Notes: generated by a model from the letters alone, not told the origin. Shown: positions 5,000 through 62,801, numbered from the stretch's first letter. The stretch is 63,839 bases of DNA from a virus (IMGVR_UViG_3300012030_000004:1-63839), one strand, 5' to 3'. Program-made: numbers and translations.

Positions 5000-5935
5000 G
5001 TGTCTACTATTCTTGTCACCGGAGGTTCCGGGTTCATCGGGTCCCACACTGTTGAAAGACTTCTTCGGGACGGCCACGAAGTCATTTCTTTTTCTAGGTC
5101 AGTGAAGCCTGCTCCCAGGAAACAAGGACTTCGATCCTTCTTAGGGGATATTCGAGATGAGACATCAGTTTTTGAGGCTATGGCTCATTGTGACGGGTTC
5201 ATTCACCTGGCTGGCATTCTGGGCACCCAAGAGACCATTCAAAATCCGCGCCCTTCTGTAGACACTAATGTCCGAGGGGGCCTCAACGTCCTAGAAGCGG
5301 CGGCTAGATACAAGGTCCCCGGAGTAAACATTGCGGTTGGGAACCACTGGGAGCAAAACCCTTATTCAATATCTAAGTCTACCGTTGAGCGGTTCGCCAA
5401 GATGTATAATCAGTACCGAGGTACGAACGTAGCCGTTGTCCGAGCCTTGAACGCCTATGGCCCGGGGCAGTCTGTCGCCGCCCCTTATGGCACCTCTCAG
5501 GTACGCAAGATCATGCCAAGCTTCGTGATGCGGGCCCTCAGGGGAGACCCCATCGAGATCTATGGAAACGGGAGCCAGGTTATGGACATGATCTACGTCT
5601 CTGACGTGGCAGACATTTTGGTAGACGCTTTGTATTACACCAAGGCCGGAGGTGAGTCGGGGTCAGATTTCTATGAGCCCGCTACGGGTCTGGAAGCTGG
5701 TACCGGAGTTACCACCACAGTGTCTCAGATAGCCCGCTCTGTCTGTGAGGAAGTCGGGGTTGACTCTGGTAGAGCAATTCTACACGTTCCTATGAGAGAC
5801 GGCGAGAAGCCCAACTCTACCGTTCTTGGTGATCCGTCTACGTTATGGCCTGTGTATGGAGACTATCCTAAAGGTTTCATTTCATTAAAGGATGGTGTCA
5901 AGAGAACAGTGGAGTTTTACAAAAATGTCTACTAA
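5000..5935 (+). CDS. NAD-dependent sugar epimerase/dehydratase
   Basis: 311 residues from GTG 5000 (AAGGAGAAGCT upstream). Extended SDR fold: TGGSGFIGSHTVERLL is the NAD-binding glycine motif (GxxGxxG), FIHLAG follows, and the active site YxxxK is seen as YSISK at about 121-125. Resembles UDP-glucose 4-epimerase/UDP-glucuronate dehydratase relatives. Substrate unknown. The two glycosyltransferase genes that follow in the same operon suggest it makes a nucleotide sugar for decorating virion or host surface (inference). Confidence 0.85.
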   Translation: MSTILVTGGSGFIGSHTVERLLRDGHEVISFSRSVKPAPRKQGLRSFLGDIRDETSVFEAMAHCDGFIHLAGILGTQETIQNPRPSVDTNVRGGLNVLEAAARYKVPGVNIAVGNHWEQNPYSISKSTVERFAKMYNQYRGTNVAVVRALNAYGPGQSVAAPYGTSQVRKIMPSFVMRALRGDPIEIYGNGSQVMDMIYVSDVADILVDALYYTKAGGESGSDFYEPATGLEAGTGVTTTVSQIARSVCEEVGVDSGRAILHVPMRDGEKPNSTVLGDPSTLWPVYGDYPKGFISLKDGVKRTVEFYKNVY

Positions 5936-6614
5936 GATCATTCATCGCTTCTGGGCTGGCCCTAAAGAGATCCCAGAAGACTATGCAGAGTTTGGGTTCA
6001 TGTGGGACAAGATGAATCCGGACTGGGAAATCAAGATGTGGACTGAAGAAGACATCAAGGAATTTCCTACTCTGGGCAAGGTTTTCAACGACTTCTATCG
6101 TAGAGACGAGGGACGTCAGGGCATTGAGTTATATGTTCAGATGGCTGATGTAATGGGATATGCTCTCGTTCATAAATTCGGTGGAATGTATGTAAACTGC
6201 GACATCGAACCAATTAGGCCTCTCCCCGAACTCCCTAAGAAGGCTTGGGCTTCATACGAGAATGACATCAATGATGTGGTCAATGCTGTTATTGGAGCTC
6301 CCGCTCCCCGGAATGTCTTTTGGGGCCGTCTCCTGTCGAAGCTTCCAGCCCGCTATTTCTTGAACCCCACCGATGAGATGGTTCATACCACAGGTCCTGG
6401 GCTTTTGACGGACATGGCCCGACGCTTACCAGAAAGGATTCACGTCTTCCCCAAAGAGACTTTCAATCCTGTGCACTGGTCTAAGATCTCGCCAGGAGGA
6501 GATGCTAAAAGCTTCAGAGATTCTCTCCCTCCGGAAACTATAGGGGTGCATCACTGGGGACACAAAAAAGATGGAAGGACCAATTACATTGAATCCGCAA
6601 CCCAGCCGAAGTAG
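5925..6614 (+). CDS. Glycosyltransferase with DxD motif (OCH1/capsular sugar type)
   Basis: 229 residues from ATG 5925, which overlaps the epimerase stop and has GGAG upstream. Features of the DXD-sugar glycosyltransferase family: IPKIIH-like start (TKIIHRFWAG), MNPDWEIKMWTEEDI, and ADVMGYALVHKFGGMYVNCDIEP, where CDIE stands at the DxD metal/nucleotide-sugar site. C-terminal GVHHWGHKK is also typical. Likely transfers one hexose to a protein or glycan acceptor; the acceptor is unknown. Confidence 0.8.
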   Translation: MSTKIIHRFWAGPKEIPEDYAEFGFMWDKMNPDWEIKMWTEEDIKEFPTLGKVFNDFYRRDEGRQGIELYVQMADVMGYALVHKFGGMYVNCDIEPIRPLPELPKKAWASYENDINDVVNAVIGAPAPRNVFWGRLLSKLPARYFLNPTDEMVHTTGPGLLTDMARRLPERIHVFPKETFNPVHWSKISPGGDAKSFRDSLPPETIGVHHWGHKKDGRTNYIESATQPK

Positions 6615-7335
6615 AGCTGTAGCCTTCACCGCCTATGACAGGCCCGGGTATCTTCGGGAATCTCTGGAGTCCTGGCGGAAAGTTCGAGGGATGAATCGGT
6701 GGTACTTCTATCTCACTGTTGACCCTTCTGGGGAAACTCAGGAAGTAGTTGATCTCTTCACGCAGTTTGCCCGAGACATGAGACTTCCTGATTGTGTGGT
6801 GAAAGTTAATCCTAGAAGGTATGGGGTTCTTCATCACCCCTGGGCCTCTTTTGATCATCTCTTTAGTAACTTAGGAGTAGACCAGGTTCTTAGGGCGGAA
6901 GATGATCTTCTCGTTTCTGATGACATTCTAGAGATGTTTGAGTGGATTGACAACACCTACTCTGAAGACACGAGAGTCGCCTCTGGGCACTCCTATTCTG
7001 GGGCACTGGAGGGGGACCCCAGAATTATTTCCAAATCTACTCGTTTCGAGTCCCTTAATTGGTGCACTTGGAGAGATAGATGGAATGACTTTATGCGGGA
7101 CACATGGGATCATGATTACTCGACTTTCAATGGGGTCCCAGGAAGAGAGTCTGGGTGGGATTGGAATTTGAACACCAGAATTTATCCCAAGTTTGGTCTT
7201 CAGGCTGTCCGACCTCAGCTCAGTAGAACTCAGAACATTGGTCTTCAGGGAACCCACTCCACGCCTCAGAACTTTTCACAGAGCCCTTCTTTCAGGGAAG
7301 AGTATGGGGTAGTTTCTTACGCAGAAGGACGATAG
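6571..7335 (+). CDS. Glycosyltransferase, GT-A fold (GNT-I-like)
   Basis: 254 residues, ATG 6571, overlapping the preceding gene by 44 bases. Starts RAVAFTAYDRPGYLRESLES, the usual opening of GT-A enzymes. RAEDDLLVSDDILEMFEW gives the E-D-D metal site and resembles the GNT-I family. Later SLNWCTWRDRWNDF and a C-terminal block RTQNIGLQGTHST fit the same group. It ends just before the packaging operon. With the epimerase and the gene before it this forms a glycosylation cassette next to head genes. Confidence 0.75.
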   Translation: MEGPITLNPQPSRSRAVAFTAYDRPGYLRESLESWRKVRGMNRWYFYLTVDPSGETQEVVDLFTQFARDMRLPDCVVKVNPRRYGVLHHPWASFDHLFSNLGVDQVLRAEDDLLVSDDILEMFEWIDNTYSEDTRVASGHSYSGALEGDPRIISKSTRFESLNWCTWRDRWNDFMRDTWDHDYSTFNGVPGRESGWDWNLNTRIYPKFGLQAVRPQLSRTQNIGLQGTHSTPQNFSQSPSFREEYGVVSYAEGR

Positions 7336-7337
7336 TA
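7327..7337 (+). promoter_or_regulatory. GGACGATAGTA element at start of packaging operon
   Basis: Exact copy of the dispersed element. The ATG of the first packaging gene (7343) lies 7 nt after its GATAG core, the same distance as at 17859. If it is a -10 element, transcription would start at or beside the A of the ATG, giving a leaderless mRNA; indeed no ribosome site is well placed for this gene. Confidence 0.65.
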
Positions 7338-7342
7338 GCACT

Positions 7343-7795
7343 ATGTCAGATAGCGCAGATCGAAGAGACCTTCAGGTTGAGGATACCCTTGACCTGGCTT
7401 TTGACCTGCCACAGGAGTTTGAGGATGACCCTTACCTGTCCTCCCTGTATCGGGAAATCATTGCTCGGTTGAGGGTTGAGGCAAACGGCCTTCCTATGAA
7501 CACTGTTCAGACTCTTCTTCTAGAGCGCATTGCTTTCTTCTACATTAATCTAAAGAGGTCAGAGAGGTCTGAAGCTCTCAGCCCAACCAGACACAAGGAC
7601 TTAGTCTCGTTCTGGCTTAATATGACCTCAGAGTTCAACAAGCAGTTAGCCGCAGGACATGAGCAGTTAAGAGACGCTCTTCTGTTGTCTATCTCTAAGA
7701 TGGTAATGAGCAAGATTGATGAGATCGAGGACCAGGAAACCCGCCAGCAGTTGAGAATCCTTCTCTCTGAGGGATTCGCAGAGATGGGGCTCTGA
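7343..7795 (+). CDS. Possible small terminase subunit
   Basis: 150 residues, ATG 7343. Mostly helical and charged (LEVEDTLDLAFDLPQEFEDD, later LLLERIAFFYINLKRSERSE). It is the first gene of the packaging operon, two genes ahead of the large terminase, where the small subunit is usually found. I see no clear helix-turn-helix, so the name rests on position. No Shine-Dalgarno at a normal distance; probably translated leaderless. Confidence 0.45.
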   Translation: MSDSADRRDLQVEDTLDLAFDLPQEFEDDPYLSSLYREIIARLRVEANGLPMNTVQTLLLERIAFFYINLKRSERSEALSPTRHKDLVSFWLNMTSEFNKQLAAGHEQLRDALLLSISKMVMSKIDEIEDQETRQQLRILLSEGFAEMGL

Positions 7796-8499
7796 TGATG
7801 GACTCTGATGACAGAGATCTGATTGTTCTTTTAGCCAGTAGCTCTGCCAGCCTTGCCGTGGCCCCGGGCAACAAGGATAATTGGGTGGAGCGTGCTGGTC
7901 CTGGAGGTCAGGGCGGCGAGCTCCCCCGCTATGTCCGAAAGATCGCCAGAGGGATAATGAAGTCAGGGAAGAGCAAGTCTCAGGCTATTGCTATTGCTAT
8001 TAGCCGTATCAAGAGATGGGCCCGGGGCGGCGAGGATGTCAAGGCGGACACACGAATCAAGGCCGCAAAGGCGTTGGCAGAGTGGACCGCTCTAAAGGCC
8101 AAGAACAAGAGAAATCAGATCGTTAAAGCCTCAAACTCCGAGGGAGAGTATTTCATGCTCTCATACTCTGGTGAGTTTAATACTGACCTTGTTCGCAGAG
8201 CCTGGAATAAGTTCCAGTCTGATCTCAGCAAGAAAACCTTTTCTGGGGACACCCCTGAAGAGGACATTCCTGTTTTCTGGATTGTCGAGCTATGGACCTC
8301 TCATATCATTGTTGAAAAGTCTACTTATGGCGAATATGATCAGTCTGAGCACTTCAAGATCCCTTATACAGTAGAGGGTTCTCAGGTCAACTTCGGGGTT
8401 CCAGAACCAGTGAAGTCTGCCTATGTCCCCGTTGAGTCAGACTTGACCTCGAATGAGAAGATCTTACTTTCTGATTTGCTGACTTCTTCTAAGGAGTAG
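7795..8499 (+). CDS. Head-associated protein with KxxRAIAIA-type domain
   Basis: 234 residues, ATG at 7795 overlapping the previous stop. Residues about 27-105 hold NWVERAGPGGQGGELPRYVR, then GKSKSQAIAIAISRIKRWARG and KAAKALAEWTALKAK. This block (unstructured start, N-W-V-E-x-A-G, a helix with A-I-A-I-A, a basic helix and an A-x-A-x-W end) recurs in phage head and protease-associated proteins. The C-terminal half has no recognised family. Function unknown. Confidence 0.6.
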   Translation: MMDSDDRDLIVLLASSSASLAVAPGNKDNWVERAGPGGQGGELPRYVRKIARGIMKSGKSKSQAIAIAISRIKRWARGGEDVKADTRIKAAKALAEWTALKAKNKRNQIVKASNSEGEYFMLSYSGEFNTDLVRRAWNKFQSDLSKKTFSGDTPEEDIPVFWIVELWTSHIIVEKSTYGEYDQSEHFKIPYTVEGSQVNFGVPEPVKSAYVPVESDLTSNEKILLSDLLTSSKE

Positions 8500-23988: not shown

Positions 23989-24551
23989 GTAAGCTTTCCT
24001 TGGCCGCACGCAATATGCTGGTACAGACTCCCGAGGTTCAGAGCCTCGTCTCTAGCGGGTTGATCGCAAGTGACTCTGAATGGGACAATGGGTGGGTTTT
24101 TGACAATTACATCATTCCCAGAGCTCTTGATGACAAGTCATACACCACAGCGGTCGTTGTTTCAGAGCGTGTCTGGCAGGATCCTAATCCACACAATACG
24201 ATGAAGTTTCCCCTGCTGGAGGTCGATATTTGGGCGGCTCCTACGAGAGATAGTTCTGGTTCCATCATAGAGAGGGACGCCGACGACCTCATTGAGGAGG
24301 TAATGGCTGGGATAATGCCTTATTTCCACGCTATTGATCGAGGCGTCCCCGGCAGATCTGGAGACCCTCATATCTCCTACATGGGCTCACCCGGAGAGGT
24401 GAGATATTGGGGAACAGAAGATGAGATTCTCAATCATACAGGGGTTCCTATTTTCGACTCCACCCATATCAGCACAGAAGACTTCAGGGATGTTGAAGGC
24501 GGTAATGGGGTAAGGTACCGATCTTACCGCTTTGGCATCGAAACAGCTTAA
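23985..24551 (+). CDS. Tail terminator-like protein
   Basis: 188 residues, GTG 23985, overlapping the previous gene (GTGA). Alpha/beta composition with FPLLEVDIWAAPTRDSSG and a C-terminal VRYRSYRFGIETA resembles proteins that cap the tail tube (lambda gpU type). Order supports it: after the gp10-like gene and before the tail tube gene, with a glycosyltransferase and a zinc ribbon inserted between. Confidence 0.6.
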   Translation: MSKLSLAARNMLVQTPEVQSLVSSGLIASDSEWDNGWVFDNYIIPRALDDKSYTTAVVVSERVWQDPNPHNTMKFPLLEVDIWAAPTRDSSGSIIERDADDLIEEVMAGIMPYFHAIDRGVPGRSGDPHISYMGSPGEVRYWGTEDEILNHTGVPIFDSTHISTEDFRDVEGGNGVRYRSYRFGIETA

Positions 24552-24579
24552 TCCAATAACTCACAGAGGACTTGATCCC

Positions 24580-25704
24580 ATGAAAGTATTGCTAACAATC
24601 CCACTCTCTCGTTTTTCAGGTTATGGGAATGACGGAATTGGACTTACCCGAGCCTTAGTACGTGCGGGGGCAGATGTATATATCCGTCCGAAGGTGGTGC
24701 AGGCTCCCCTTCCTGCTGACATTGCCCAGCTTCTGACAAAGGGGCTTCGAGCCCCTTTCGATCTCACCATCACCCACTTGGACCCAGCGGCCTTACAGCT
24801 ACCCCCCGACACCCGCGCCTCCAGTAAGATCTGCATCGCCTGGAGCATGTGGGAGTACACAGACTTTAGCTTCATGAGAGGTCGATCTAAACTCCGCGAG
24901 AATCTGCGAGACTACGATGCTGTAGTTGGGTATGACGAGGTTACTAACGAGTGTTTCCGCCCTTATTATCGGGGTCCTATCCTGAAGCAACAAGGTGGAT
25001 ATGAGCCGGAAGGTTGGGAGTATTTAGAGCGGAATTGGAATTCGGAAGACTTCTATTTCTCCATGGTTGGGGCTCCCCTTTCTATCAGGAAGAATCCATT
25101 GTCTGCTGTGAAGGCATTTGGCGAACTCAAGAACGAGAACTCCGAGTTTGACAAACATGCTAGGTTGATGTTGAAAACTACCCCTGACGACAAAGGACTT
25201 AGCCCCAAGATGGAGGATGTGTATCCGGGTCTGAGGGTGTTCGCGGATACTTGGACCCCTGACATTCTCAAAGAGTTCTATCGGAACACCCACGTACTTC
25301 TGGCCCCCTCCCGGGGGGAAGGGAAGCACATGCCTTCTCTGGAGATCCAAAGCACTGGAGCTCCGGTCATCGCTACCAACTGGGGTGGCATGACTGAATG
25401 GCTTAGCCCTGAGTATTCCTACCCAGTGGACTACCGGCTGTCCCTTCAAGACCCTATCAACAAGTCTATGACTAACGCTGAAGTCTCGGTCCCTCATCTC
25501 AAAGAGCTTATGCTTCATGCGTTCCAGAATCGAGATGAAGTGAGGCACAAGGGGTTCGTAGCTTCGCAGATTATCCCTCAACTTTGCTCCTGGGAGAATG
25601 TTGTAGGTAGGTTGATGGGCAAATTGAGGGATCTCGAAGGTGGAGAGGAACTGTGGGCCCGTTACCAGATAGCTCTTTCGGAGGCTGAAGATGGAGACGA
25701 CTGA
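24580..25704 (+). CDS. Glycosyltransferase, GT-B (GT4-like)
   Basis: 374 residues from ATG 24580 (AGAGGA upstream). N-lobe opens KVLLTIPLSRFSGYGNDGIG, matching the G-x-G-x-G-x-x loop of GT-B enzymes; C-lobe has VLLAPSRGEGKHMPSLEIQSTGAPVIATNWGG, the classic G-E-G...E...S-G-x-P-V-I-A-T motif of GT4 members. The position between tail terminator and tail tube genes suggests it modifies a tail or capsid protein (inference). GT genes among structural genes are known from phages with glycosylated virions. Confidence 0.85.
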   Translation: MKVLLTIPLSRFSGYGNDGIGLTRALVRAGADVYIRPKVVQAPLPADIAQLLTKGLRAPFDLTITHLDPAALQLPPDTRASSKICIAWSMWEYTDFSFMRGRSKLRENLRDYDAVVGYDEVTNECFRPYYRGPILKQQGGYEPEGWEYLERNWNSEDFYFSMVGAPLSIRKNPLSAVKAFGELKNENSEFDKHARLMLKTTPDDKGLSPKMEDVYPGLRVFADTWTPDILKEFYRNTHVLLAPSRGEGKHMPSLEIQSTGAPVIATNWGGMTEWLSPEYSYPVDYRLSLQDPINKSMTNAEVSVPHLKELMLHAFQNRDEVRHKGFVASQIIPQLCSWENVVGRLMGKLRDLEGGEELWARYQIALSEAEDGDD

Positions 25705-37288: not shown

Positions 37289-38452
37289 ATGAAAAATTAC
37301 CCTTTATACGCTGTTATACCCTGTCACAATGATTGTGAGCTTTCTAATTGGGCAGTAAGAGCTTTACTTTTCTCTGAGGCAAAGTTTGAGAAAATTATTG
37401 TTGTTGCAGACAGATGTTTTAGCCATGTCAATTCTTGGAAGTATGATGAAGTCTCTGTTATTTTCCTGGAGGATAATTCCGAAGGAAAGTCCGGAGCCCT
37501 GAACAAAGCTTTAACTCTCCTCTCTCTCTCCAGTCCTTCTGGCTTTTACATTCTATTTTGCGATGCTGATACCGTCATAGATCTTAGTCAGGTTCGGTTT
37601 CTACAGTCGGAGATCTCTGCTTCAGGAGTCAAAGCAGTGATGGCTCAAGTCTCGATTCTGAGTTCTGACAGTCTTCTTGTTGGATTCCAGAGGCTAGAAC
37701 TACAAAACCAAATTTTGGACCATAAAAGAAATAGCTATCGGTCTGACATAATTACAGGCCAGGCTTCTATTGTGGACATGACAGAGGGCAGTTACTTTTT
37801 TGACAGTGGCTCTCTGGTAGAAGATCAAAGGCTCACCTATCAGCTGAGGGCTGAGTTTGGGGACGCTTCTTGCTTGGTCTCTCGCCACACGGGAGCAGTT
37901 ACGGATCCTATGACCTCTTGGAAAGGGTGGTGGGCCCAGCGCCGAAAATGGAACACGGGCTCTCTCAATGAGGTGCTCGCCCAGCCTTTCTCACTGACCA
38001 AGCGTTACTGGCGGCGTCTTTTTAGTACCCTCTTCGACTTGAGTTTGAGGACCTCGGTCCTTCTTGGGGTCATTCTCTTCCCAAGCTTTTGGTGGGTGGG
38101 TCTTCTCCTTGTGGCCGTTGGCATGGTAGTATCAACCCCCTGGGGCTCAGTAAGAGTTCGAAGTGACCACAGGCCCGTACTTTTGTGGGAGCTCTACCAA
38201 TGGGCTTTGTGGGCTAACCTGGGAGCCAGCTTGGTAAAACGAGGACAGCAGGGGTTATGGGAGAAGCAACGAGAAGCCGAGTCTAGGACGGGACAAAGTA
38301 GAGATCTCCTGGCCTCGATTGCGGGCTTGGGTCTGCTCTCCTTTGTTTCCTTGCTCCTGGCCCCTTTAACTATCCCTGTACTAGTTTTTAGACAGATCAA
38401 TCGATTAAGGAGAAAACAAGATGAATCTGGACATAAATTTAGAAACAGCTAA
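37289..38452 (+). CDS. Membrane-bound GT2 glycosyltransferase
   Basis: 387 residues, ATG 37289. GT-A N-lobe: YPLYAVIPCHND, then SGALNKAL and YILFCDADTVID (DxD). Later SLVEDQRLTYQL (ED catalytic position) and WWAQRRKWNTGS (Q-R-R-x-W), the hallmarks of processive GT2 enzymes such as hyaluronan synthase-like proteins. Hydrophobic segments around 255-285 and 345-370 anchor it in the membrane. Probably modifies a surface or lipid-linked glycan of the host; fourth glycosyltransferase in the window. Confidence 0.8.
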   Translation: MKNYPLYAVIPCHNDCELSNWAVRALLFSEAKFEKIIVVADRCFSHVNSWKYDEVSVIFLEDNSEGKSGALNKALTLLSLSSPSGFYILFCDADTVIDLSQVRFLQSEISASGVKAVMAQVSILSSDSLLVGFQRLELQNQILDHKRNSYRSDIITGQASIVDMTEGSYFFDSGSLVEDQRLTYQLRAEFGDASCLVSRHTGAVTDPMTSWKGWWAQRRKWNTGSLNEVLAQPFSLTKRYWRRLFSTLFDLSLRTSVLLGVILFPSFWWVGLLLVAVGMVVSTPWGSVRVRSDHRPVLLWELYQWALWANLGASLVKRGQQGLWEKQREAESRTGQSRDLLASIAGLGLLSFVSLLLAPLTIPVLVFRQINRLRRKQDESGHKFRNS

Positions 38453-39807: not shown

Positions 39808-41493
39808 GTGCCTAAATTTGACGTCCGGGGGCTGACAGACCGCCACCGTGAAGAGCTCGCTTGGAAGATCCATGAGATGGATGACTTCAATCTTCCCGAG
39901 CTAAAGGCGTGGAACTACGAGCTCTGCCGCCAACACAGAAATGGCTGGGAAGAGCCCTATTGGGACCCAGATTCTCAGCAGGAGCGCCATCATCTGATCA
40001 TCACTCGACCCAAACCTGGGTGTCGCAAGTGTGGACTCAGATTTCGCAAGCATCAGCGAGTGGGAGTGGCCTGGTTATACCTCAAGAAGAGGGCCCTTCT
40101 CGCGGACACAATGGGTGCGGGGAAGACCACTACAGTTGGTGGTCTCATCGCCCTCCTCTTGGAAACAGGGGAACTACCCCAAAAGGGAAGAGTCATCATT
40201 GTGCCTCGGTCCCCGGCATTAATGCAGTGGTACACCGAGCTTCTCAGAATGATGCCTAATCTCAATGTGGTGGTGGCGACAGGAACAAAAACTCAGCGTT
40301 CTAATCTGTATGTTCAGAGTTGGGATGTTCTTCTTATCGGCCCCGAGATGATTAGAAATGACCAGGATGCCTTATCTAGATTCCCTCTAGCCGCCTTGGT
40401 AACAGACGACATCGACCCCCTACGAAATGACACCACAGACACTTCCATTTGCTTAGATTCTTTAGGTAGAAAAGCAGATAGATATGTCATTGTCTCTGGT
40501 ACTCCTCTTCAAAAGCGCCTCCCTGAGATCTACAACATTCTTGATGGTGTGGGTGGTGAAATGATCTTTGGATCATTAGATCAGTTCATGAGCCGCTACG
40601 TCCGAAGCGAGCTTGTCACTGAGTACAACGTCAAGGACCATCGCCAAGAGACCAAGAGAAAGATCGTAGGTTATCGAAACCTCAATGACCTGAAAAGGCG
40701 TATGGCTCCTCTGGTCCTTCGCCGGACGGCGGCTGACCTGGATGACATCACCCTACCCACTATCAACTCTGATGACATCTTCCTCAAGCTCTACCCCTCT
40801 CAGCAGAAGCGCTATGACGATCTCAGACGAGAAGTTGTTCGCCTCTTGAAGGAGGGAGGAGAGGAGATTGAGAAGCACGTCAACGCCTTGTCCAAGATTC
40901 ATTATGGAGCCGCGATTTGTGCAGGTCTCGCGGCTCTGGACGGGCCTGAGTTCGACGCCCCTGGAACCTCGGTGAAGTTGGACTGGATCATGGAGAAGAT
41001 CGGGGAAGACGGCGATCTCGGAGAAGAGAAGGTGGTCATCTTTGCTAACCTGAAGAACACCGTTCGGGCCTTGCAAGACCGCCTTCGCACAGAGGGTATC
41101 GGGTTTGTGACCGTGTGGGGTGAGGAGGCCAACAAGTCCAAGCGGGCAGAGTCTCAAGAGCGTTTTTGGCAGGATCCCAAGTGCCGTGTACTCATTGGAA
41201 CTCGGGCTATCGAGCAGTCACTTAACCTTCAGGTAGCTCGCCACCTCATCAATGTGGATATGATTCTCAACCCCGCGAGGATGGAGCAGTTGGCTGGTAG
41301 AATCAGAAGAGACGGCTCCGCTTATCAGCACGTTTTCGTTCACAACCTTTTGGCGGCAGATACCCAAGAACAGAGATATATGGCAATGATTGAGAGAGAA
41401 GCCGCCCTCTCTTCTCACGTTTGGGATGAGAACTCTGAGCTATTCAAGGCTCTCAGCCCCCTTGACCTTCTACATCTCATTAGTGGAGATTGA
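39808..41493 (+). CDS. SNF2-like superfamily 2 DNA helicase/translocase
   Basis: 561 residues, GTG 39808, GGAGGGTAA upstream. Includes a Cys pair (GCRKCG) and then RKHQRVGVAWLYLKKRALLADTMG (SNF2 motif Q and start of I), Walker A DTMGAGKTTT at about 100-109, motif II as TDDIDPL instead of DEAH, motif III VIVSGTPLQKR, and in the C-lobe VVIFANLKNTVRALQDRL, LIGTRAIEQSLNLQ and LAGRIRRDGS (motif VI). DNA translocase, likely in replication or recombination. The DDID motif II is unusual but keeps the metal-binding acid. Confidence 0.85.
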   Translation: MPKFDVRGLTDRHREELAWKIHEMDDFNLPELKAWNYELCRQHRNGWEEPYWDPDSQQERHHLIITRPKPGCRKCGLRFRKHQRVGVAWLYLKKRALLADTMGAGKTTTVGGLIALLLETGELPQKGRVIIVPRSPALMQWYTELLRMMPNLNVVVATGTKTQRSNLYVQSWDVLLIGPEMIRNDQDALSRFPLAALVTDDIDPLRNDTTDTSICLDSLGRKADRYVIVSGTPLQKRLPEIYNILDGVGGEMIFGSLDQFMSRYVRSELVTEYNVKDHRQETKRKIVGYRNLNDLKRRMAPLVLRRTAADLDDITLPTINSDDIFLKLYPSQQKRYDDLRREVVRLLKEGGEEIEKHVNALSKIHYGAAICAGLAALDGPEFDAPGTSVKLDWIMEKIGEDGDLGEEKVVIFANLKNTVRALQDRLRTEGIGFVTVWGEEANKSKRAESQERFWQDPKCRVLIGTRAIEQSLNLQVARHLINVDMILNPARMEQLAGRIRRDGSAYQHVFVHNLLAADTQEQRYMAMIEREAALSSHVWDENSELFKALSPLDLLHLISGD

Positions 41494-41494
41494 C

Positions 41495-42229
41495 ATGAAC
41501 CCACCCTTGAATGACACGCAGAGAAAACTTGTCGAAGATAACATCGACCTAGCCCGTCATCTTGCCCACACTTCGTGGAGGCGAATGACAGCTGGAGTGG
41601 AACTAGACGAAGTCCTCTCTGCCGCCTACCATGGGCTGACTATTGCCGCCCGTAACTACGACCCCATGGCCTTTGATAGATCCCAGGAGTCTATTGACAG
41701 CGGGGTGGCGTTCTCTTCCTACGCCAGGAGAAGGATTCTAGGGTCAATCCTGGACTGGCAAAGGTCTCAAGACCATGTCCCTAGAAGACAGCGCAAGGTC
41801 TATAAAGAGATTCAGGAACTTGGATACGAGTCGGGCGTGCCTTTAGAGACTATTTCTTCGAAGCTGGATCTTCCTCTAGAGAAAGTTAAGTCTATCATTT
41901 CTCGTGTGGAGAGTTCCCCGGTTTCTTTTGACAACCATATTCCTAATTCAGACGAGAACTCAGGAGGGGACTTAGGGTTCCAGGTCGAGGACCAGAATGA
42001 TTTGGAATCTTCTTCGTTGGTTAAGTTGATCTCTAAGACTATGACTGAGGCATGGGAATCTCTTCCTCATGAGCAAAGATTGATTGTGGCCCTTCGCTAC
42101 TATGCGGAAATTGACCTCTCTGCTATTGCCAGCCTGCTTGACTCCTCGTTGGAGTCCGTGCGCTCTTCCCATGCCCTGGCCGTGGAAGCCTTGCACCAAG
42201 CCATGCTGTCTGAAGTCTCGGGAGAATAG
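41495..42229 (+). CDS. Sigma-70 family RNA polymerase sigma factor, FliA/WhiG-like
   Basis: 244 residues from ATG 41495 (GGAG upstream), just after the helicase. Region 2: VEDNIDLARHLAHTSWRRM, LDEVLSAAYHGLTIAARNYD, and AFSSYARRRILGSILDWQRS followed by QDHVPRRQRK. That last stretch is close to the FliA/WhiG pattern F-S-x-Y-A-x-x-R-I-x-G-A-I-L-D-x-x-R-x-x-D-x-V-P-R. Region 3 (KEIQELGYESGVPLETISSK) and region 4 (LPHEQRLIVALRYYAEIDLS, then a helix-turn-helix) complete it. FliA-type factors use a GCCGATAA -10, so the GG(A/C)CGATAGTA sites in this phage are candidate targets. Made with replication genes, it would switch on late genes. Confidence 0.85.
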   Translation: MNPPLNDTQRKLVEDNIDLARHLAHTSWRRMTAGVELDEVLSAAYHGLTIAARNYDPMAFDRSQESIDSGVAFSSYARRRILGSILDWQRSQDHVPRRQRKVYKEIQELGYESGVPLETISSKLDLPLEKVKSIISRVESSPVSFDNHIPNSDENSGGDLGFQVEDQNDLESSSLVKLISKTMTEAWESLPHEQRLIVALRYYAEIDLSAIASLLDSSLESVRSSHALAVEALHQAMLSEVSGE

Positions 42230-44435: not shown

Positions 44436-45002
44436 ATGGCTGACATGAAGTTCTCTGAAAAGAGAGAGATCGCCAATAAGCTTATGTCTATCTTTGAGGC
44501 CTACACATTATCCTCTGGAATTTATGTGGGGGAGTTTGAATACGGGTCCCCTAAGATGTCCTGCCCGTTCACTGGAATCTATCATAATGACGCTCGTTCT
44601 TTTAGGATCTACCCACAGTCTAATAGTGCCTATTGTTTTGCTTGCTCCATCTACTATACCCCTGTCAAGCTCATCTCGATGTCTAAGGACCTATCTGACT
44701 CTGAGGCTGTAGAGTGGATTCTCGAACACAAAGGGTATGTTGAGCCGAACTTCGAAGATGTCTGGGACTCCATCACTTCTGATGACGACGAGGAGATGAC
44801 AACTTCTTATCTAGCAGAAGCTCTCAAAACTGCGTGTGCTAGGATGGATAATGACTGGAACCAAAAGCAATTTGAACCTGAAGTGTCTGGAATGCTGAAT
44901 CGTTGTTTATCGCTTCTTCCAAGGGTCCAGAATGCGCAGGACAGTGAGAAATGGTTAGGGGCCTCAAAGGTCGCCATGTCAAGAACCCTGAGAGGAGGTT
45001 AA
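44436..45002 (+). CDS. CHC2-type primase zinc-finger protein without catalytic domain
   Basis: 188 residues, ATG 44436. CPFTGIYHNDARSFRIYPQS followed by AYCFACSIYYTPVKLI reproduces the DnaG/T7 primase zinc fold (C-x-H..C-x-x-C: C at about 43, H, then CFAC), which reads DNA templates and delivers primers. The rest is helical and acidic; no TOPRIM catalytic domain is present here or elsewhere in the window. It may work with the host DnaG or with DnaB. Confidence 0.7.
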   Translation: MADMKFSEKREIANKLMSIFEAYTLSSGIYVGEFEYGSPKMSCPFTGIYHNDARSFRIYPQSNSAYCFACSIYYTPVKLISMSKDLSDSEAVEWILEHKGYVEPNFEDVWDSITSDDDEEMTTSYLAEALKTACARMDNDWNQKQFEPEVSGMLNRCLSLLPRVQNAQDSEKWLGASKVAMSRTLRGG

Positions 45003-45004
45003 CC

Positions 45005-45793
45005 TTGGTTATTGGTCATTCTGTTGTGGTTTCTGAACTTGAGGTAGACCTTCCTAGGGTGTCCCTTTTCTTGGGGCCGAAGTCTGTGGGAAAAACTACT
45101 GTCGCTCAACACCTCAAAGGATTCTACGGGGTCTCGGGCTCTGACTACCTCCATGTAGAACATCTTGATGCTGAGTCAGTGCAGAGAGTAGTAGGATTTG
45201 CTCGGACCCACCCCTCTAGAGATAAGAAGCTGATCGTCTTACAGATGGACGGCTCTTCGAGGATTACTCAAGATGCCCTACTCCTCACTTTAGAAGAGAC
45301 CCCGCCAGACGTTCACTTTATCTTGGTTTCCTCTGAGTCTCTTGTTCCTACCTTGAGCTCTAGAGCAAAGGTCTTTCATTTTCCCTTCCTTCAGGAGGAG
45401 GAAGTAGAAGAGGTGCTTCGAGAGGTTCTTTCTGATGCGGCAAATGTGTCCCGCTTGGCCAAAGCTTCTGGCGGGCAGATCTTTCGAGCCTTCACGGCTT
45501 CTAAGCTTTCAGAGAAGAGGTCTGAAGTTCTAAGAGCCCTGCACGCCTTCTACGCGAGGGATGCTACGATCTTGGAGAAGATAGCCCCCTCGTGGACTGC
45601 TGACCATACTTCCTTGCTGGAGATTTGGTGCCAGGAGCTCATCACAGGGAGATGGCGACTGTTCGAGCCAGCCGAAGCAGGACTATCTGACCGCAAGCTG
45701 GCGATCCGCCTCCTCATTGCCATTAGGTCGGGGATTCGACCCCGCTTAGTGGTGAGGTCTAGTATCATGGATGTATGGAGAGATTACATATGA
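45005..45793 (+). CDS. Clamp-loader delta'-like ATPase
   Basis: 262 residues from TTG 45005, chosen because GAGGAGG lies 6 nt upstream and the previous gene stops at 45002. LPRVSLFLGPKSVGKTT carries Walker A (about 24-32), LIVLQMDGSSRITQDALLLT replaces Walker B, and LEETPPDVHFILVSSESL and TLSSRAKVFHF (SRC position as SRA) follow the delta'/gamma pattern. C-terminal helical collar domain. Would join the DnaX-like (3880) and delta-like (45978) proteins. Confidence 0.78.
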   Translation: MVIGHSVVVSELEVDLPRVSLFLGPKSVGKTTVAQHLKGFYGVSGSDYLHVEHLDAESVQRVVGFARTHPSRDKKLIVLQMDGSSRITQDALLLTLEETPPDVHFILVSSESLVPTLSSRAKVFHFPFLQEEEVEEVLREVLSDAANVSRLAKASGGQIFRAFTASKLSEKRSEVLRALHAFYARDATILEKIAPSWTADHTSLLEIWCQELITGRWRLFEPAEAGLSDRKLAIRLLIAIRSGIRPRLVVRSSIMDVWRDYI

Positions 45794-57590: not shown

Positions 57591-58593
57591 ATGTTCGTAT
57601 TGGCATTGATTCTGATCCTTCTGGGAATTGCTGGGCTTTTTGTCTCCCTGGTGCTCCACAAGAAGGTCAAGAATATGATGAGCGCGGAGTCTTCGCGCTA
57701 CTTCAACTCCGATCTGGCAGACGCCAAGTTCGCTAAGAAAACGACTCTGGTCATCTCTTGCATCTTGGGGGCTGTTGGGCCCGTCGTCTTGTTCTTCAGC
57801 TCGTTTTATGTTCAGGATGCTGGTGAGGCAAAGGTTCAGGTTTCGTGGACTGGTGAGCTCATCGGACAGACTACTGAGGAGGGACTGCACTTCAAGGCCC
57901 CTTGGGTCAGTGTCCGTACCTTCGATGTCCGCAACAACATTGCTTCCTTCATTGATGGCGGGGGAGACCACTTATACGGGAGGCAAGGCCACCGGCCCTC
58001 AGATCACCTTCCAGGACCGTGATGGTGTGACGGGTAACCTCGATGTTGTCGTTCGATACTCAGTGGATCCCACCGCTGTATTGGAGATCTATCGAGAGTT
58101 TCAGACCCAGGAAGCCTTTGTTGATCGAGTGATTCTCCAGGGGGTCCGCGAAGAGGCCAGAAATGCTCCTGCTACTCGTGGGACTCTAGAGGTCTACAAC
58201 TCCCGAGCTCAGGTAGCTTTCGAGATCTCGGAGTCCTTGCGCGAGCGCTGGGCTGAGGAAGGTGTCATCGTTGAAGAGGTCACACTCCAGGAGATTCGCT
58301 ACAGCTCCGAAGTGACTGCCCGTTTTGATGACGCACAAGCGGCTCGGATTGCTGTGGACCGGGCTGAGGCTGAGCAGGAAGCGGCTTCGGTTGTTGCTGA
58401 CACCTTGGTGATTGAAGCACAGGGTGTGGCTGATGCGGCTGTGGTTGAGGCCCAGGGGCGGTCTGAGGCAAACGAGATCCTCTCCAGCTCCCTGACTGAG
58501 GAAATTCTTCTCCAACGCTACATCGACGCACTGAATGATGGTACAATCTATGTAGTCCCGGAGGGATCCACTCCCTTCATTGGGACCCGATAG
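57591..58593 (+). CDS. SPFH/prohibitin-like membrane protein, interrupted by a +1 frame change
   Basis: ATG 57591 opens a frame with two hydrophobic spans (FVLALILILLGIAGLFVSLV, then LVISCILGAVGPVVLFFSSF) and VSWTGELIGQTTEEGLHFKA. That frame ends at 58022, while the frame continuing the SPFH domain (TYTGGKATGPQITFQDRDG, DVVVRYSVDPTAVLEIYREF, a long Ala/Glu coiled coil) runs to 58593. The two join cleanly if one G is removed from the GGGGG at 57960-57964 (FIDGGETTYTGG). Either a sequencing error, a true mutation or a slip site. SPFH proteins form membrane rings; phage role unknown. A terminator follows. Confidence 0.7.
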
Positions 58594-60576: not shown

Positions 60577-60577
60577 A

Positions 60578-60588
60578 GGCCGATAGTA
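60578..60588 (+). promoter_or_regulatory. GGCCGATAGTA element upstream of Y RNA locus
   Basis: Exact copy of the dispersed element, 2 bp after the thyX stop and 29 bp before a sigma-70-type -35. The Y RNA locus therefore seems to have both an early/constitutive and a late-type promoter. Confidence 0.6.
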
Positions 60589-60616
60589 GAAAGTTCAAAA
60601 TTTTTGCCCTCTGAGC

Positions 60617-60645
60617 TTGACAAGGGCCCGGAGGGTCTGTAGTGT
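60617..60645 (+). promoter_or_regulatory. Sigma-70-type promoter of the Y RNA/Ro locus
   Basis: TTGACA-17-TAGTGT. Transcription would begin about 60652, just before Y1 (60674), and could run through Y1, Y2, Y3 and the Ro gene. Confidence 0.7.
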
Positions 60646-60673
60646 CATCAACATAACTTAACAGCGCGAGATT

Positions 60674-60757
60674 TACACGAGCCGAAGAGGCAGTCGGTTA
60701 TCATTCAAACTGAAATTATGCCCTCGGGCTATCCGACCCTCACCCCATGTTCGTGTG
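60674..60757 (+). ncRNA. Y RNA 1 (short form, no tRNA-like module)
   Basis: Lower stem 60675-60682 pairs with 60749-60756 (8 bp, one G-U). Then comes the conserved unpaired CGAA facing an ACCCCAU strand, a 4-bp helix (60687-60690 with 60738-60741), a CA bulge, a 5-bp helix (60693-60697 with 60733-60737) and the loop start UUAUC. This is the Ro-binding core of Y RNAs (human: CCGAAGG ... GAGUUAUC). The remaining loop holds only a small GCC/GGC hairpin. Stems match Y2 and Y3 in position but not in sequence. Confidence 0.85.
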
Positions 60758-60764
60758 TTTCTTA

Positions 60765-60875
60765 GAATGAGCCGAAGAGGCATCGGTTATCCCACTGAAA
60801 ATGAGAACCTGGCGGTTCGATTCCGTCATTAGTTGGAACAGGTTATTTTTCCGATCTTCACCCCCATGCTCATTC
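60765..60875 (+). ncRNA. Y RNA 2 (with a T-arm-like branch)
   Basis: Perfect 8-bp lower stem (60765-60772 with 60868-60875), unpaired CGAA facing ACCCCCAU, helix 60777-60780 with 60856-60859, one bulged C, helix 60782-60786 with 60851-60855, then GGUUAUC. The distal part forms an extended stem (60798-60802 with 60845-60849; 60806-60810 with 60840-60844) carrying a tRNA T-arm-like hairpin (60811-60827, 5-bp stem, 7-nt loop UUCGAUU). No D arm or acceptor is seen, so only part of a tRNA-like module is present. Confidence 0.85.
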
Positions 60876-60879
60876 ACTC

Positions 60880-60922
60880 GCCTCTCTTGGAGGTTCATCG
60901 GGTTCGACTCCCGATGGAGGCA
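60880..60922 (+). ncRNA. tRNA acceptor/T-arm minihelix between Y2 and Y3
   Basis: 6-bp acceptor-like helix (60880-60885 with 60916-60921, last pair U-G) stacked on a 6-bp T stem (60897-60902 with 60910-60915) with the 7-nt loop UUCGACU: 12 bp in total, the length of a tRNA acceptor/T stack. No D or anticodon arm; 11 nt link the strands. No CCA encoded. It could be a tRNA relic or a mark recognised by RNase P and RNase Z to separate Y2 from Y3 (inference). Confidence 0.5.
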
Positions 60923-60924
60923 CA

Positions 60925-61058
60925 AAAACTGAACCGAAGAAGTATTGGTTATCCATGCTAAGGAAGAGGTCACGGGTTCGAATCCCGTCATCAGACCTAG
61001 TCTGATGTAGCTCAGAGGCAGAGCGCTTAAACCCAATCTTCACCCCATGTTCAGTTTT
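60925..61058 (+). ncRNA. Y RNA 3 with circularly permuted tRNA-like module (YrlA-type)
   Basis: Perfect 10-bp lower stem (60925-60934 with 61049-61058), unpaired CGAA facing ACCCCAU, helix 60939-60942 with 61038-61041, bulged U, helix 60944-60948 with 61033-61037, then GGUUAUC: the Ro-binding core. The loop holds tRNA parts in permuted order: variable-like GAGGUC, T arm 60972-60988 (loop UUCGAAU), acceptor 3' strand 60989-60995, CCUAG, acceptor 5' strand 61001-61007 (7 perfect pairs), UA, and D arm 61010-61024 (GCUC/GAGC, loop AGAGGCA). A short CUUA/UAAG helix joins it to the Y stem where an anticodon arm would be. This is the layout of bacterial YrlA RNAs. Confidence 0.92.
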
Positions 61059-61060
61059 AC

Positions 61061-61085
61061 CACATGTTCAGAAATACTGAACCGA
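61061..61085 (+). other. Y-like hairpin/remnant just before the Ro gene
   Basis: CACATGTTCAG and ACTGAACCGA copy the 3' and 5' ends of Y3's lower stem in reversed order and form a 6-bp hairpin (61066-61071 with 61077-61082, loop AAAUA). It may be the scar of a lost fourth Y RNA, or a leader element that competes with Y3 pairing or is bound by Ro for self-control. Confidence 0.45.
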
Positions 61086-61103
61086 GAGAAAGGATGAACA
61101 CCT

Positions 61104-62723
61104 ATGGCTAACAATAGCCTCAAGTCCGTCACAACCCGACCCGGAATGACGGCCACTCCTCAGACGCAGAAGGCGGCTAAGGGGCAGAAGGAGAACAACG
61201 CAGGCGGCTACACGTTCACTGTCTCAGACATGGACCGAGCCAAGCGTTTCTTGATCCTTGGATCTGACTCGTCGTTCTACCAGAGCGGCCAGAAGCTCTC
61301 CAAGGACAACGCCAAGAACCTGATCAAGCTTGCGAAGTCTGACCGTGCCCAGGAGCTCACTGACCTGATTGTGGAGATCTCCACTCAGGGTCGTGCGGCC
61401 AAGCAGGACCCCGGTCTGTTTGCACTGGCCGTCGTGGCTTCCCATGGCGCGACTGAGGACAAGCAGTACGCTCTGTCCAAGCTCTCTCAGGTAGCCCGTA
61501 CCGGATCCTCGCTGTTCACGTTCATCACTTACGTGGAGCAGTTCCGAGGGTGGGGGCGTGCCCTGACCAAGGCGGTTTCTTCTTGGTACACGGAGAAGTC
61601 TGTGGACAAGCTCGCCTACCAGACGGTGAAGTACCGTCAGCGTGATGGCTGGACTCACCGGGACGTGTTCCGCAAGGCGCACCCTCAGAAGGGCAAGAAC
61701 GGAATCTCCGAAGGAGAGGATGCTCGTGCTTTTGAGGCGCTGGGTGAGTGGATTCTCCGAGGTGAGTTGTTGGAGAACACTCCTAAGCTTGTTCGCGGCT
61801 TCACGATGGCCCAGACTGCTTCTAAGTCTGAGCTTCCTGCTCTGATCAGGGAGTACGGACTGTCGTGGGAGATGCTTCCTACCGAGGCTCTGAACGACAA
61901 GAAGGTCTGGGAGACGTTGCTTCAGGGCAATGTTCCTCTCGGGGCCCTGTTGCGTCAGCTTCCTCGTTTGACGAAGCTCGGCATCGTCGCGCCTATGGGT
62001 GGAAAGACTGCTGAGATCGCCAAGAGGATCACTGATCCTGAGGAGCTCAAGCGTGCCCGTATCCACCCCTTGAACCTTCTGGTTGCCCAGAAGACCTACG
62101 GGGCGGGGCACAGCCTCCGGGGCAATTCCTCCTGGGCCCCCAACCAGAAGATCGTGGACGCTCTTGACAAGGCCTTCTACCTGTCCTTCAAGACGGTCGA
62201 GCCCGCTGGCAAGCGCACTCTGATTGGGTTGGATGTCTCCGGCTCGATGGGCTGGGCTTCAGTGGCCGGGGTTCCTCTCATGCCTTCCGAGGCAGGAGCG
62301 GCCCTTGCGTTGGTCATTGCCAACACGGAGCCTGAGGCGCACATCTTCGGATTTGCGGACACCTTCCGTGAGTTGGGCCTCTCCCCAGGGATGCGACTTG
62401 ACCAGGCCCTGCGGCAGACAAGTTTAAGGACGTTCGGAGGCACGGACTGTGCTCAGGCCATCGAGTACGCTCGTACTCACAAGTTGGAAGTGGACACGTT
62501 CCTTGTGATCACAGACAACGAAACCTACGGGGGTCGGAGTCACCCACACGAGGCCTTGCAGAGGTACCGTCGAGAGACTGGCATCGATGCGAAGCTCATC
62601 GTGCTGGCGACTACTGCTTCCGAGTTCAGCCTCGCGGATCCCAGTGATGGTGGGATGCTGGACATCGCTGGGTTCGACTCAGCAGTTCCTCAGCTGATCA
62701 ACGAGTTCTCTCGGGGACTCTGA
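61104..62723 (+). CDS. rsr: Ro60-like TROVE-domain RNA-binding protein (Rsr)
   Basis: 539 residues, the size of animal Ro60 and bacterial Rsr. ATG 61104 with GAAAGGA upstream. Residues about 35-365 are the TROVE HEAT-repeat ring: DMDRAKRFLILGSDSSFYQS, ALAVVASHGATEDKQYALSK, FTFITYVEQFRGWGRALTKA, WYTEKSVDKLAYQTVKYRQR and GWTHRDVFRKAHP, all hallmark Ro segments. Residues about 370-539 are a VWA domain with an intact MIDAS: DVSGSMG (Asp377), GGTDC (Thr447) and ITDNE (Asp471). Ro binds misfolded RNA 3' ends in its ring and Y RNA on its outer surface; in bacteria Y RNA tethers Ro to polynucleotide phosphorylase. Directly downstream of three Y RNAs. Confidence 0.95.
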   Translation: MANNSLKSVTTRPGMTATPQTQKAAKGQKENNAGGYTFTVSDMDRAKRFLILGSDSSFYQSGQKLSKDNAKNLIKLAKSDRAQELTDLIVEISTQGRAAKQDPGLFALAVVASHGATEDKQYALSKLSQVARTGSSLFTFITYVEQFRGWGRALTKAVSSWYTEKSVDKLAYQTVKYRQRDGWTHRDVFRKAHPQKGKNGISEGEDARAFEALGEWILRGELLENTPKLVRGFTMAQTASKSELPALIREYGLSWEMLPTEALNDKKVWETLLQGNVPLGALLRQLPRLTKLGIVAPMGGKTAEIAKRITDPEELKRARIHPLNLLVAQKTYGAGHSLRGNSSWAPNQKIVDALDKAFYLSFKTVEPAGKRTLIGLDVSGSMGWASVAGVPLMPSEAGAALALVIANTEPEAHIFGFADTFRELGLSPGMRLDQALRQTSLRTFGGTDCAQAIEYARTHKLEVDTFLVITDNETYGGRSHPHEALQRYRRETGIDAKLIVLATTASEFSLADPSDGGMLDIAGFDSAVPQLINEFSRGL

Positions 62724-62741
62724 GCTCAGCTTCTCCTAGCC

Positions 62742-62788
62742 AAGGCCGGGCGACAACAACTTCAGGGTTGCTTTTGTCGCCCGGCCTT
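62742..62788 (+). terminator. Long perfect hairpin after the Ro gene
   Basis: 15-bp perfect GC-rich stem (62742-62756 with 62774-62788) plus an inner CAAC/GTTG pair, 19 bp after the Ro stop. Only a short T run is present in the loop side and after the stem, but the structure is strong enough to act as a terminator or RNA-stabilising 3' end. Confidence 0.75.
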
Positions 62789-62801
62789 GCTACGCTAGGG
62801 C
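62774..62801 (+). promoter_or_regulatory. Possible promoter overlapping the hairpin
   Basis: TTGTCG-16-TAGGGC, starting inside the right arm of the terminator. Weak match, but the next gene (62833) must be transcribed past the terminator somehow. Confidence 0.3.

What the first reader, a model, noticed from the sequence alone, without database searches (positions are those of the whole stretch)
60577..62723. Phage-encoded Ro60 (Rsr) with three tandem Y RNAs: a complete, possibly undescribed RNP module
Seen: three RNAs, each with CCGAAG and GGUUAUC on the 5' strand and CACCCC-AUG on the 3' strand, followed within 50 bp by a full-length TROVE+VWA Ro protein with intact MIDAS residues. Known: Ro60/Rsr binds Y RNA through this core, and bacterial Y RNAs tether Ro to PNPase to make an RNA-degrading machine. 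Single Ro homologues have been noted in some mycobacteriophages, but I know of no phage with a tandem Y RNA trio. Inference: the phage builds its own Ro RNP to redirect host RNA decay or quality control, or to shield its RNAs.
Basis: partly seen in the sequence, partly recalled or inferred. Interest (0 to 1): 0.96.

Follow-up and report, generated by a model that had tools for sequence, protein, structure and literature searches.

The report
Phage Ro protein with three Y RNAs
A virus of a soil-type actinobacterium carries its own copy of the Ro protein, which patrols RNA quality in human and bacterial cells, and directly before it three small partner RNAs, one of which imitates a transfer RNA; such sets turn out to be common in these viruses, but the Ro messenger RNA here also carries a rearranged copy of the Ro docking site right at its translation start, which suggests self-regulation.

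Summary
ORF 61104-62723 is a full-length Ro60/Rsr protein (TROVE plus vWA, intact MIDAS; best solved relatives D. radiodurans Rsr and Xenopus Ro60). Exactly three Y RNAs lie upstream, at 60675-60756, 60765-60875 and 60927-61056. A covariance model built from other phages' Y RNAs, without this window, finds the third at 110 bits and the second at 52 bits. A two-block profile finds these three and nothing else. Rfam alone would have missed them: its best hit, YrlA, scores 34.9 bits against a cut-off of 69. The third RNA carries the tRNA-mimicking module; the second keeps only a T-arm.

The novelty claim fails. Phage Ro and phage Y RNAs are published, and tandem arrays are common: 41 of 90 phage Ro loci scanned here have three or more, a mycobacteriophage included.

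The Ro mRNA leader (61060-61094) contains a permuted Y lower stem touching the Shine-Dalgarno sequence. It recurs in 13 of 89 phage Ro leaders against 0.13-0.36 expected, always followed by CGA or CGG, the Ro-recognition bases. I propose that Ro represses its own translation. No RNA, binding or PNPase link was tested.

The parts
60617..60645 (+). weak candidate promoter (TTGACA, 17 nt, TAGTGT) just upstream of the Y RNA array
   Evidence: read from sequence; below the threshold of the consensus scan, which found none
60675..60756 (+). Y RNA 1: lower stem, CCGAAG/ACCCC bulge, short insert without tRNA mimicry
   Evidence: two-block profile 43.0 bits; fold -29.8 kcal/mol, z -2.5
60765..60875 (+). 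Y RNA 2: same core; insert keeps a T-arm (GGCGG-TTCGATT-CCGTC) but no recognisable acceptor or D-arm
   Evidence: CM R1 52.1 bits, E 1.5e-9; profile 44.3 bits
60880..60922 (+). tRNA-like minihelix (acceptor GCCTCT/GGAGGC plus T-arm) between Y2 and Y3; possible RNase P/RNase Z processing site or tRNA remnant
   Evidence: sequence; acceptor-closed fold -17.1 against optimum -18.4 kcal/mol; weak sub-threshold match to the tmRNA tRNA-like end
60927..61056 (+). Y RNA 3: full Y RNA with tRNA-mimicking module
   Evidence: CM R1 110.3 bits, E 2.2e-22, full length; profile 33.5 bits
60964..61030 (+). tRNA-mimic module of Y RNA 3: T-arm, acceptor-like stem, D-arm in permuted order
   Evidence: Rfam YrlA positions 23-87, 34.9 bits, E 6.4e-6, below gathering score 69; fold
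61060..61094 (+). permuted Y lower stem in the Ro mRNA leader: ACATG-TTCAG-AAATA-CTGAAC-CGAGAGAAAGGA, running into the Shine-Dalgarno sequence; proposed autoregulatory Ro site
   Evidence: enriched in Ro leaders, p 2.6e-12; covariation across 17 leaders
61104..62723 (+). Ro60/Rsr protein, 539 aa, TROVE plus vWA domain
   Evidence: Pfam; 2NVO 3.6e-115 and 1YVP 1.9e-110; AF2 model pLDDT 87.7 and Foldseek to Ro60 structures, TM 0.85-0.87
62741..62789 (+). 16-bp inverted repeat without a U tract, possible transcription terminator after Ro
   Evidence: read from sequence; not called by the terminator scan

Best explanation
This is a compact Ro ribonucleoprotein module of an actinobacteriophage. Shown: a full Ro/Rsr protein; three Y RNAs directly upstream on the same strand; one of them with a YrlA-type tRNA mimic; and a Y-type lower stem, in permuted strand order, in the Ro leader against the Shine-Dalgarno sequence. 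Inferred: the spacer and the gene are one transcript; the Y RNAs are cut out of it; each binds Ro by its lower stem and CCGA bulge. Y3 then acts as the effector RNA that brings a tRNA-recognising partner or host PNPase to Ro, as in the RYPER complex. Y1 and Y2 mainly cap the RNA-binding surface of Ro. When Y RNAs run short, free Ro binds its own leader hairpin and blocks translation, so protein and Y RNA stay balanced. The module probably serves surveillance or degradation of structured RNAs, above all tRNAs and their fragments, during infection.
For: Identity: Pfam TROVE and vWA_Ro60; D. radiodurans Rsr and Xenopus Ro60 as best solved relatives; fold match to Ro60. MIDAS residues D377, S379, S381, T447 and D471 are invariant in 20 phage homologues. 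H193 aligns with Ro60 H187, whose H187S mutant loses Y RNA binding (PMC11277228). Y RNAs: CM and profile hits with models that contain no window sequence; acceptor and T stems, not used for selecting the sequences, covary. Conserved 5' placement: 71 of 90 phage loci have a Y RNA within 900 nt upstream of Ro. Leader: 13 of 89 phage Ro leaders have T-G..C hairpins followed by CGA (10) or CGG (3); every other trinucleotide gives at most 1. Other SD leaders in the same loci: 1 of 703, Fisher p 2.6e-12. Stem covariation with flanks kept. PMC11277228 names GGUCCGA as the conserved Ro-critical Y sequence; leader and Y3 here both read GAACCGA. RYPER and YrlA tRNA mimicry: PMC8394870.
Against: No transcript, binding or phenotype data exist for this virus. 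No PNPase or RtcB is encoded in this record, which may be a fragment. About half of the Y-Y junctions in other phages could also pair in this permuted way, with longer loops (33 of 67), so the leader hairpin may have begun as an array junction and could be a relic. Most Ro leaders (76 of 89) lack the strict form of the hairpin. The leader has only the lower stem, not the upper helix of a Y RNA. No promoter passed the scan.
Confidence: 0.6

Rival explanations
1. The Y RNAs serve as tRNA decoys or inhibitors: the tRNA-mimic module engages host anticodon nucleases or other tRNA-targeting defences, with Ro stabilising the RNA.
For: Y3 carries T-, acceptor- and D-arms. For Salmonella YrlA a competitive-inhibitor role toward an anticodon nuclease has been suggested (PMC7790460). 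In related phages Ro/Y loci lie in or beside tRNA gene arrays.
Against: No anticodon loop is present in the mimic; Y1 has no mimic at all; no defence context was found in this window; YrlA was not a substrate of the nuclease in that study.
Confidence: 0.2
2. The leader hairpin is only the relic of an array junction or a truncated fourth Y RNA, whose CCGAAG happened to become part of the Shine-Dalgarno region; it has no regulatory role.
For: Half of Y-Y junctions could form the same permuted pairing; in the window the leader repeats the 3' strand of Y3 (CACATGTTCAG after CCCATGTTCAG).
Against: In L018, L034, L070, L071 and L102 no confident Y RNA lies nearby, yet the hairpin is tight and perfect. 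Stems covary while the flanking T and CGR are kept; the element also occurs in a few bacterial rsr leaders such as Nocardia.
Confidence: 0.3
3. The module is host-derived cargo (a moron) that improves stress survival of the infected or lysogenised host and has no specific role in phage replication.
For: Closely similar Ro proteins (50-53% identity) with upstream Y RNAs occur in actinobacterial genomes; Ro promotes UV survival in D. radiodurans (PMC4726728).
Against: Ro occurs in many unrelated large actinophages, often with tRNA arrays; this window encodes its own polymerase, helicase and ThyX, and no integrase was recognised among the ORFs searched.
Confidence: 0.2

Closest known systems
Phage Ro/Y RNA loci: 'Ro-like RNA binding protein' of actinophages, and Y RNAs reported in mycobacteriophages (Chen et al. 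2014, RNA 20:1715, known here only through papers that cite it)
   Same: Full TROVE+vWA Ro, Y RNAs directly upstream, often at least one with a tRNA-like domain; arrays of 1-6 Y RNAs in 71 of 90 loci
   Different: Closest named-phage Ro protein 53% identical, no nucleotide match in INPHARED; minihelix between Y2 and Y3; strict permuted Y stem in the leader, seen in about one in seven relatives
D. radiodurans Rsr / Y RNA / PNPase (RYPER)
   Same: Ro fold (2NVO E 3.6e-115), Y RNA with tRNA-like effector module
   Different: Three Y RNAs here; no link to PNPase tested; phage-borne
Salmonella rsr-yrlBA-rtcBA RNA repair operon (YrlA, Rfam RF02553)
   Same: tRNA-mimic module aligns to YrlA positions 23-87; Ro and Y RNA genes adjacent
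   Different: Score below the YrlA gathering cut-off; no RtcB in this record
Listeria phage CKA15 Rsr with three highly transcribed putative ncRNAs (PMC12282133)
   Same: Phage Rsr homologue with three putative upstream ncRNAs, suggested to be Y RNAs
   Different: There the RNAs are expressed but not identified as Y RNAs; here they are identified by sequence and covariance, expression unknown
Thermus phage phiLo Ro60 (PDB 9L5Y)
   Same: A phage Ro60 already has a solved structure, found by fold search
   Different: Only 20% identity over the alignment, TM about 0.55; a much more distant Ro

Membership tests
Ro60/Rsr protein family | TROVE domain and C-terminal vWA domain above curated cut-offs | tested here: met
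   PF05731 158.4 bits (cut-off 23) and PF25045 186.4 bits (cut-off 27.7)
Ro60/Rsr protein family | MIDAS motif DxSxS...T...D | tested here: met
   D377, S379, S381, T447 and D471 present and invariant in A1
Ro60/Rsr protein family | HEAT-ring Ro fold | tested here: met
   AF2 pLDDT 87.7, pTM 0.84; Foldseek to 2i91, 1yvp and 9nep at TM 0.85-0.87
Ro60/Rsr protein family | binds Y RNA | not testable with these tools
   only residue conservation: H193 = Ro60 H187
Bacterial/phage Y RNA | lower stem from paired ends with conserved G-N-N-CCGA bulge next to an rsr gene | tested here: met
   three profile hits, two CM hits, 47 nt from rsr
Bacterial/phage Y RNA | at least one Y RNA with tRNA-like domain | tested here: met
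   Y3, CM R1 110 bits over full length
Rfam YrlA (RF02553) | score at or above gathering cut-off of 69 bits | tested here: not met
   34.9 bits for Y3, nothing listed for Y1 and Y2
RYPER (Ro/Y RNA/PNPase machine) | Y RNA tethers Ro to PNPase | not testable with these tools
   no PNPase-type domain (RNase_PH) in this record; a host PNPase would be needed
RNA repair operon (rtcBA-rsr-yrl) | RtcB ligase gene linked to rsr | tested here: not met
   no RtcB in the record

The most novel reading that the evidence does not exclude
Ro proteins of phages and some bacteria control their own translation by binding a circularly permuted Y RNA lower stem placed against the Shine-Dalgarno sequence of their mRNA, so that Y RNA supply sets Ro synthesis; the Y RNAs themselves are cut from mixed Y RNA/tRNA arrays by tRNA-processing enzymes.
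Probability: 0.4. Interest if true: 0.7.

Novelty: new member of a known kind. Interest (0 to 1): 0.5.

Why it matters
Ro60 is a central autoantigen and RNA quality-control protein, yet the purpose of its phage copies is unknown. Showing that phage Ro genes commonly come with arrays of one to six Y RNAs, which Rfam cut-offs can miss and which were not annotated in any of the 17 named loci fetched, gives many tractable laboratory systems (Mycobacterium, Gordonia and Microbacterium phages) in which to test what Ro RNPs do. The permuted Y stem in the Ro leader makes a concrete prediction about Ro autoregulation that can be checked with one gel shift and one reporter. The alternation of Y RNAs with tRNA genes in Gordonia phages offers a simple explanation of how bacterial Y RNAs get their ends.

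Tried and rejected
Rfam at gathering score over the whole window: nothing. Megablast of the locus and of the genome middle against INPHARED: nothing, so the virus has no close named relative. A first loose descriptor produced chance hits elsewhere and was replaced by a two-block profile with a clean background. A second covariance model from the stem arms failed on a wrong structure length and was dropped in favour of the profile. Promoter and terminator scans gave nothing usable. A survey for further T-arm/acceptor minihelices between Y RNAs mostly returned Y RNAs that the first descriptor had missed; the best parallel to the window's minihelix is L002, so the processing-site idea is weak here. 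The Chen et al. 2014 paper is not held and is cited only through others. The 'undescribed trio' claim was rejected. Considered and rejected: the hairpins as ordinary tRNAs (ARAGORN finds none in the window) and as terminators (no U tract, conserved Ro motif instead).

Full report
What is there. The window is an IMG/VR virus record of 63,839 bases. It carries portal, capsid, tail, polymerase, helicase, recombinase and ThyX genes. Its portal is closest to Microbacterium phage Magritte (58% over 83%), so the host is probably an actinobacterium of that kind (inference). No close relative is in INPHARED at the DNA level; one IMG/VR contig (L001) is 100% identical over the Ro protein and is a fragment of the same or a nearly identical virus.

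The protein. ORF 61104-62723 (539 aa) matches TROVE and vWA_Ro60 far above cut-off. Its best solved relatives are D. radiodurans Rsr (2NVO, E 3.6e-115) and Xenopus Ro60 (1YVP, E 1.9e-110). An AlphaFold2 model (pLDDT 87.7, pTM 0.84) superposes on Ro60 structures with TM 0.85-0.87. The MIDAS residues D377, S379, S381, T447 and D471 are invariant in 20 homologues from phages. K176 and R180 are invariant too, and H193 aligns with Ro60 H187, whose H187S mutant does not bind a Y RNA (PMC11277228).

The RNAs. Three copies of a Y-type core lie between thyX and rsr and fold with the common lower stem. Rfam reports nothing at gathering score; in the relaxed search YrlA matches the core of the third RNA (positions 23-87, 34.9 bits, cut-off 69, E 6e-6). 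I therefore built independent models. From 24 Y RNAs with tRNA-mimic inserts of other phages (none from this virus) RNAalifold gave 31 pairs, 23 with changes on both sides. These include acceptor and T-arm pairs that had not been used to select the sequences. The resulting covariance model finds 60927-61056 at 110.3 bits and 60765-60875 at 52.1 bits in the window and nothing else. A two-block profile of the lower stem and bulge finds exactly three places, 60675-60756, 60765-60875 and 60927-61056, scoring 33-44 bits, against a best of 24.4 in 958 kb of shuffled sequence. The lower-stem statistics are partly circular, because the sequences were selected for pairing there. The third RNA has the whole permuted tRNA module (T-arm, acceptor, D-arm); the second keeps a T-arm; the first has a short insert.

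How common this is. 353 INPHARED records hold a Ro homologue, and 17 named loci were fetched together with 80 IMG/VR loci. In 90 non-identical loci, 71 have at least one Y RNA within 900 nt upstream of Ro, 58 at least two and 41 at least three. The background is 17 hits in 256 kb downstream, several of them probably true Y RNAs. Mycobacteriophage LinStu and Microbacterium phages FuzzBuster and Cece have three each. The 90 loci are the best matches to this protein, so the fractions are not an unbiased survey. Phage Y RNAs are described as known in mycobacteriophages and proposed for a Listeria phage with an Rsr and three abundant RNAs (PMC12282133), and a Thermus phage Ro60 structure exists (9L5Y). 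The module is therefore a new member of a known kind.

The leader. Just before the Ro start codon the sequence reads ACATG-TTCAG-AAATA-CTGAAC-CGAGAGAAAGGATG (61062-61096). This is the Y lower stem with strand order reversed: the 3'-strand motif (ATG plus stem) comes first, then a small loop, then the 5'-strand stem followed by CCGA, running into the Shine-Dalgarno sequence. I searched 55 nt upstream of Ro starts for a hairpin of at least 5 bp, loop up to 9, T before it and CGA/CGG after it. It occurs in 13 of 89 phage leaders. It occurs in 1 of 703 other SD-led starts in the same loci (Fisher p 2.6e-12) and in 61 of 15,040 random 58-mers. With the hairpin geometry fixed and the following trinucleotide free, CGA gives 10, CGG 3 and every other at most 1. 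This is the sequence that Ro reads in Y RNAs (GGUCCGA; PMC11277228). Across 17 leaders, phage and bacterial, 98.8% of cells pair, three of five pairs show changes on both sides, and no slid control comes close; selection for pairing again inflates this, and some of the loci are related. Six of 79 bacterial rsr leaders have it too, two of them Nocardia carnea genomes; that excess over chance (0.6-0.75 expected) is modest. The main caveat is that 33 of 67 Y-Y junctions could pair in the same permuted way with longer loops, so the leader may have arisen from an array junction. In at least five phages, however, the tight hairpin stands without a confident neighbouring Y RNA. The simplest functional reading is feedback: Ro not occupied by Y RNA binds its own leader and blocks initiation. 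This is inference.

Processing. Between Y2 and Y3 lies a 43-nt element with a T-arm and a six-pair acceptor-like stem (60880-60922), about four bases from the Y RNA on either side. It can fold as an acceptor-T minihelix at -17.1 kcal/mol, against an optimum of -18.4. In Gordonia phages Sixama and Forza, Y RNAs alternate with tRNA genes at gaps of one to six bases. Over the 36 loci with tRNAs, 18 Y RNAs lie within 25 bases of a tRNA, against a mean of 4.4 and a maximum of 12 in 300 random placements. This suggests that RNase P and RNase Z cuts at tRNAs free the Y RNA ends, and that the minihelix in the window may do the same. It is the weakest link here, since only L002 shows a clear parallel.

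Mechanism and role. By analogy with D. radiodurans, where Y RNA tethers Ro to PNPase, and with Salmonella YrlA, whose tRNA-like domain is modified by tRNA enzymes (PMC8394870), Y3 is the likely effector RNA and Y1/Y2 the capping RNAs. The record has no PNPase domain or RtcB, so a host partner would be needed. Decoy and moron models remain open.

Verdict. Observation confirmed, module identity near certain, originality claim refuted. The leader element and the Y/tRNA alternation are the parts worth following.

Noticed in passing
L016 5028-5750; L017 5032-5519; L184 (reverse strand): In Gordonia phages Sixama and Forza four (Sixama) or three (Forza) Y RNAs alternate with tRNA genes at gaps of 1-6 nt (Y/tRNA-Arg/Y/tRNA-Gln/Y/tRNA-Ile/Y/tRNA-Met in Sixama); unannotated in the records.
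   Followed up: partly
window 60880-60922; L002, T-arm at -275 relative to the Ro start: tRNA-like minihelix (acceptor plus T-arm) sitting between two Y RNAs; possible processing signal or tRNA remnant.
   Followed up: partly
L113, L114, L112, L118, L136, L179 (bacterial rsr leaders): The permuted Y stem before the Shine-Dalgarno region also occurs in some bacterial rsr genes, e.g. Nocardia carnea ATGCCCGG-ATA-CCGGGC-CGAGGGAAGG.
   Followed up: partly
L003 3995-4558: The Ro ORF of this IMG/VR contig has in-frame stops (first ends at 4558), so it is either broken or an assembly error, although its four upstream Y RNAs look intact.
   Followed up: no
window 57775-58593; L009 664-1683: An SPFH/Band-7 membrane protein gene lies close to the Ro locus in the window and in Microbacterium phage Cece.
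   Followed up: no
L017 4483-4886: Gordonia phage Forza encodes a tmRNA just after its Ro gene, inside the Y/tRNA array.
   Followed up: no
window 5000-8499: Cluster of a nucleotide-sugar epimerase and glycosyltransferase-like genes; further glycosyltransferases at 24532-25704 and 37289-38452 suggest glycosylation of virion or DNA.
   Followed up: no
window 3880-4977 and 44951-45793: Two clamp-loader-like (DNA polymerase III delta'/gamma) genes in one phage record.
   Followed up: no
window 41390-42229: Phage sigma factor-like protein (Sigma70 region 4), so the Y array may use a phage-specific promoter not covered by the sigma-70 scan.
   Followed up: no
window 62741-62789: Perfect 16-bp inverted repeat without a U tract directly after the Ro gene.
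   Followed up: no
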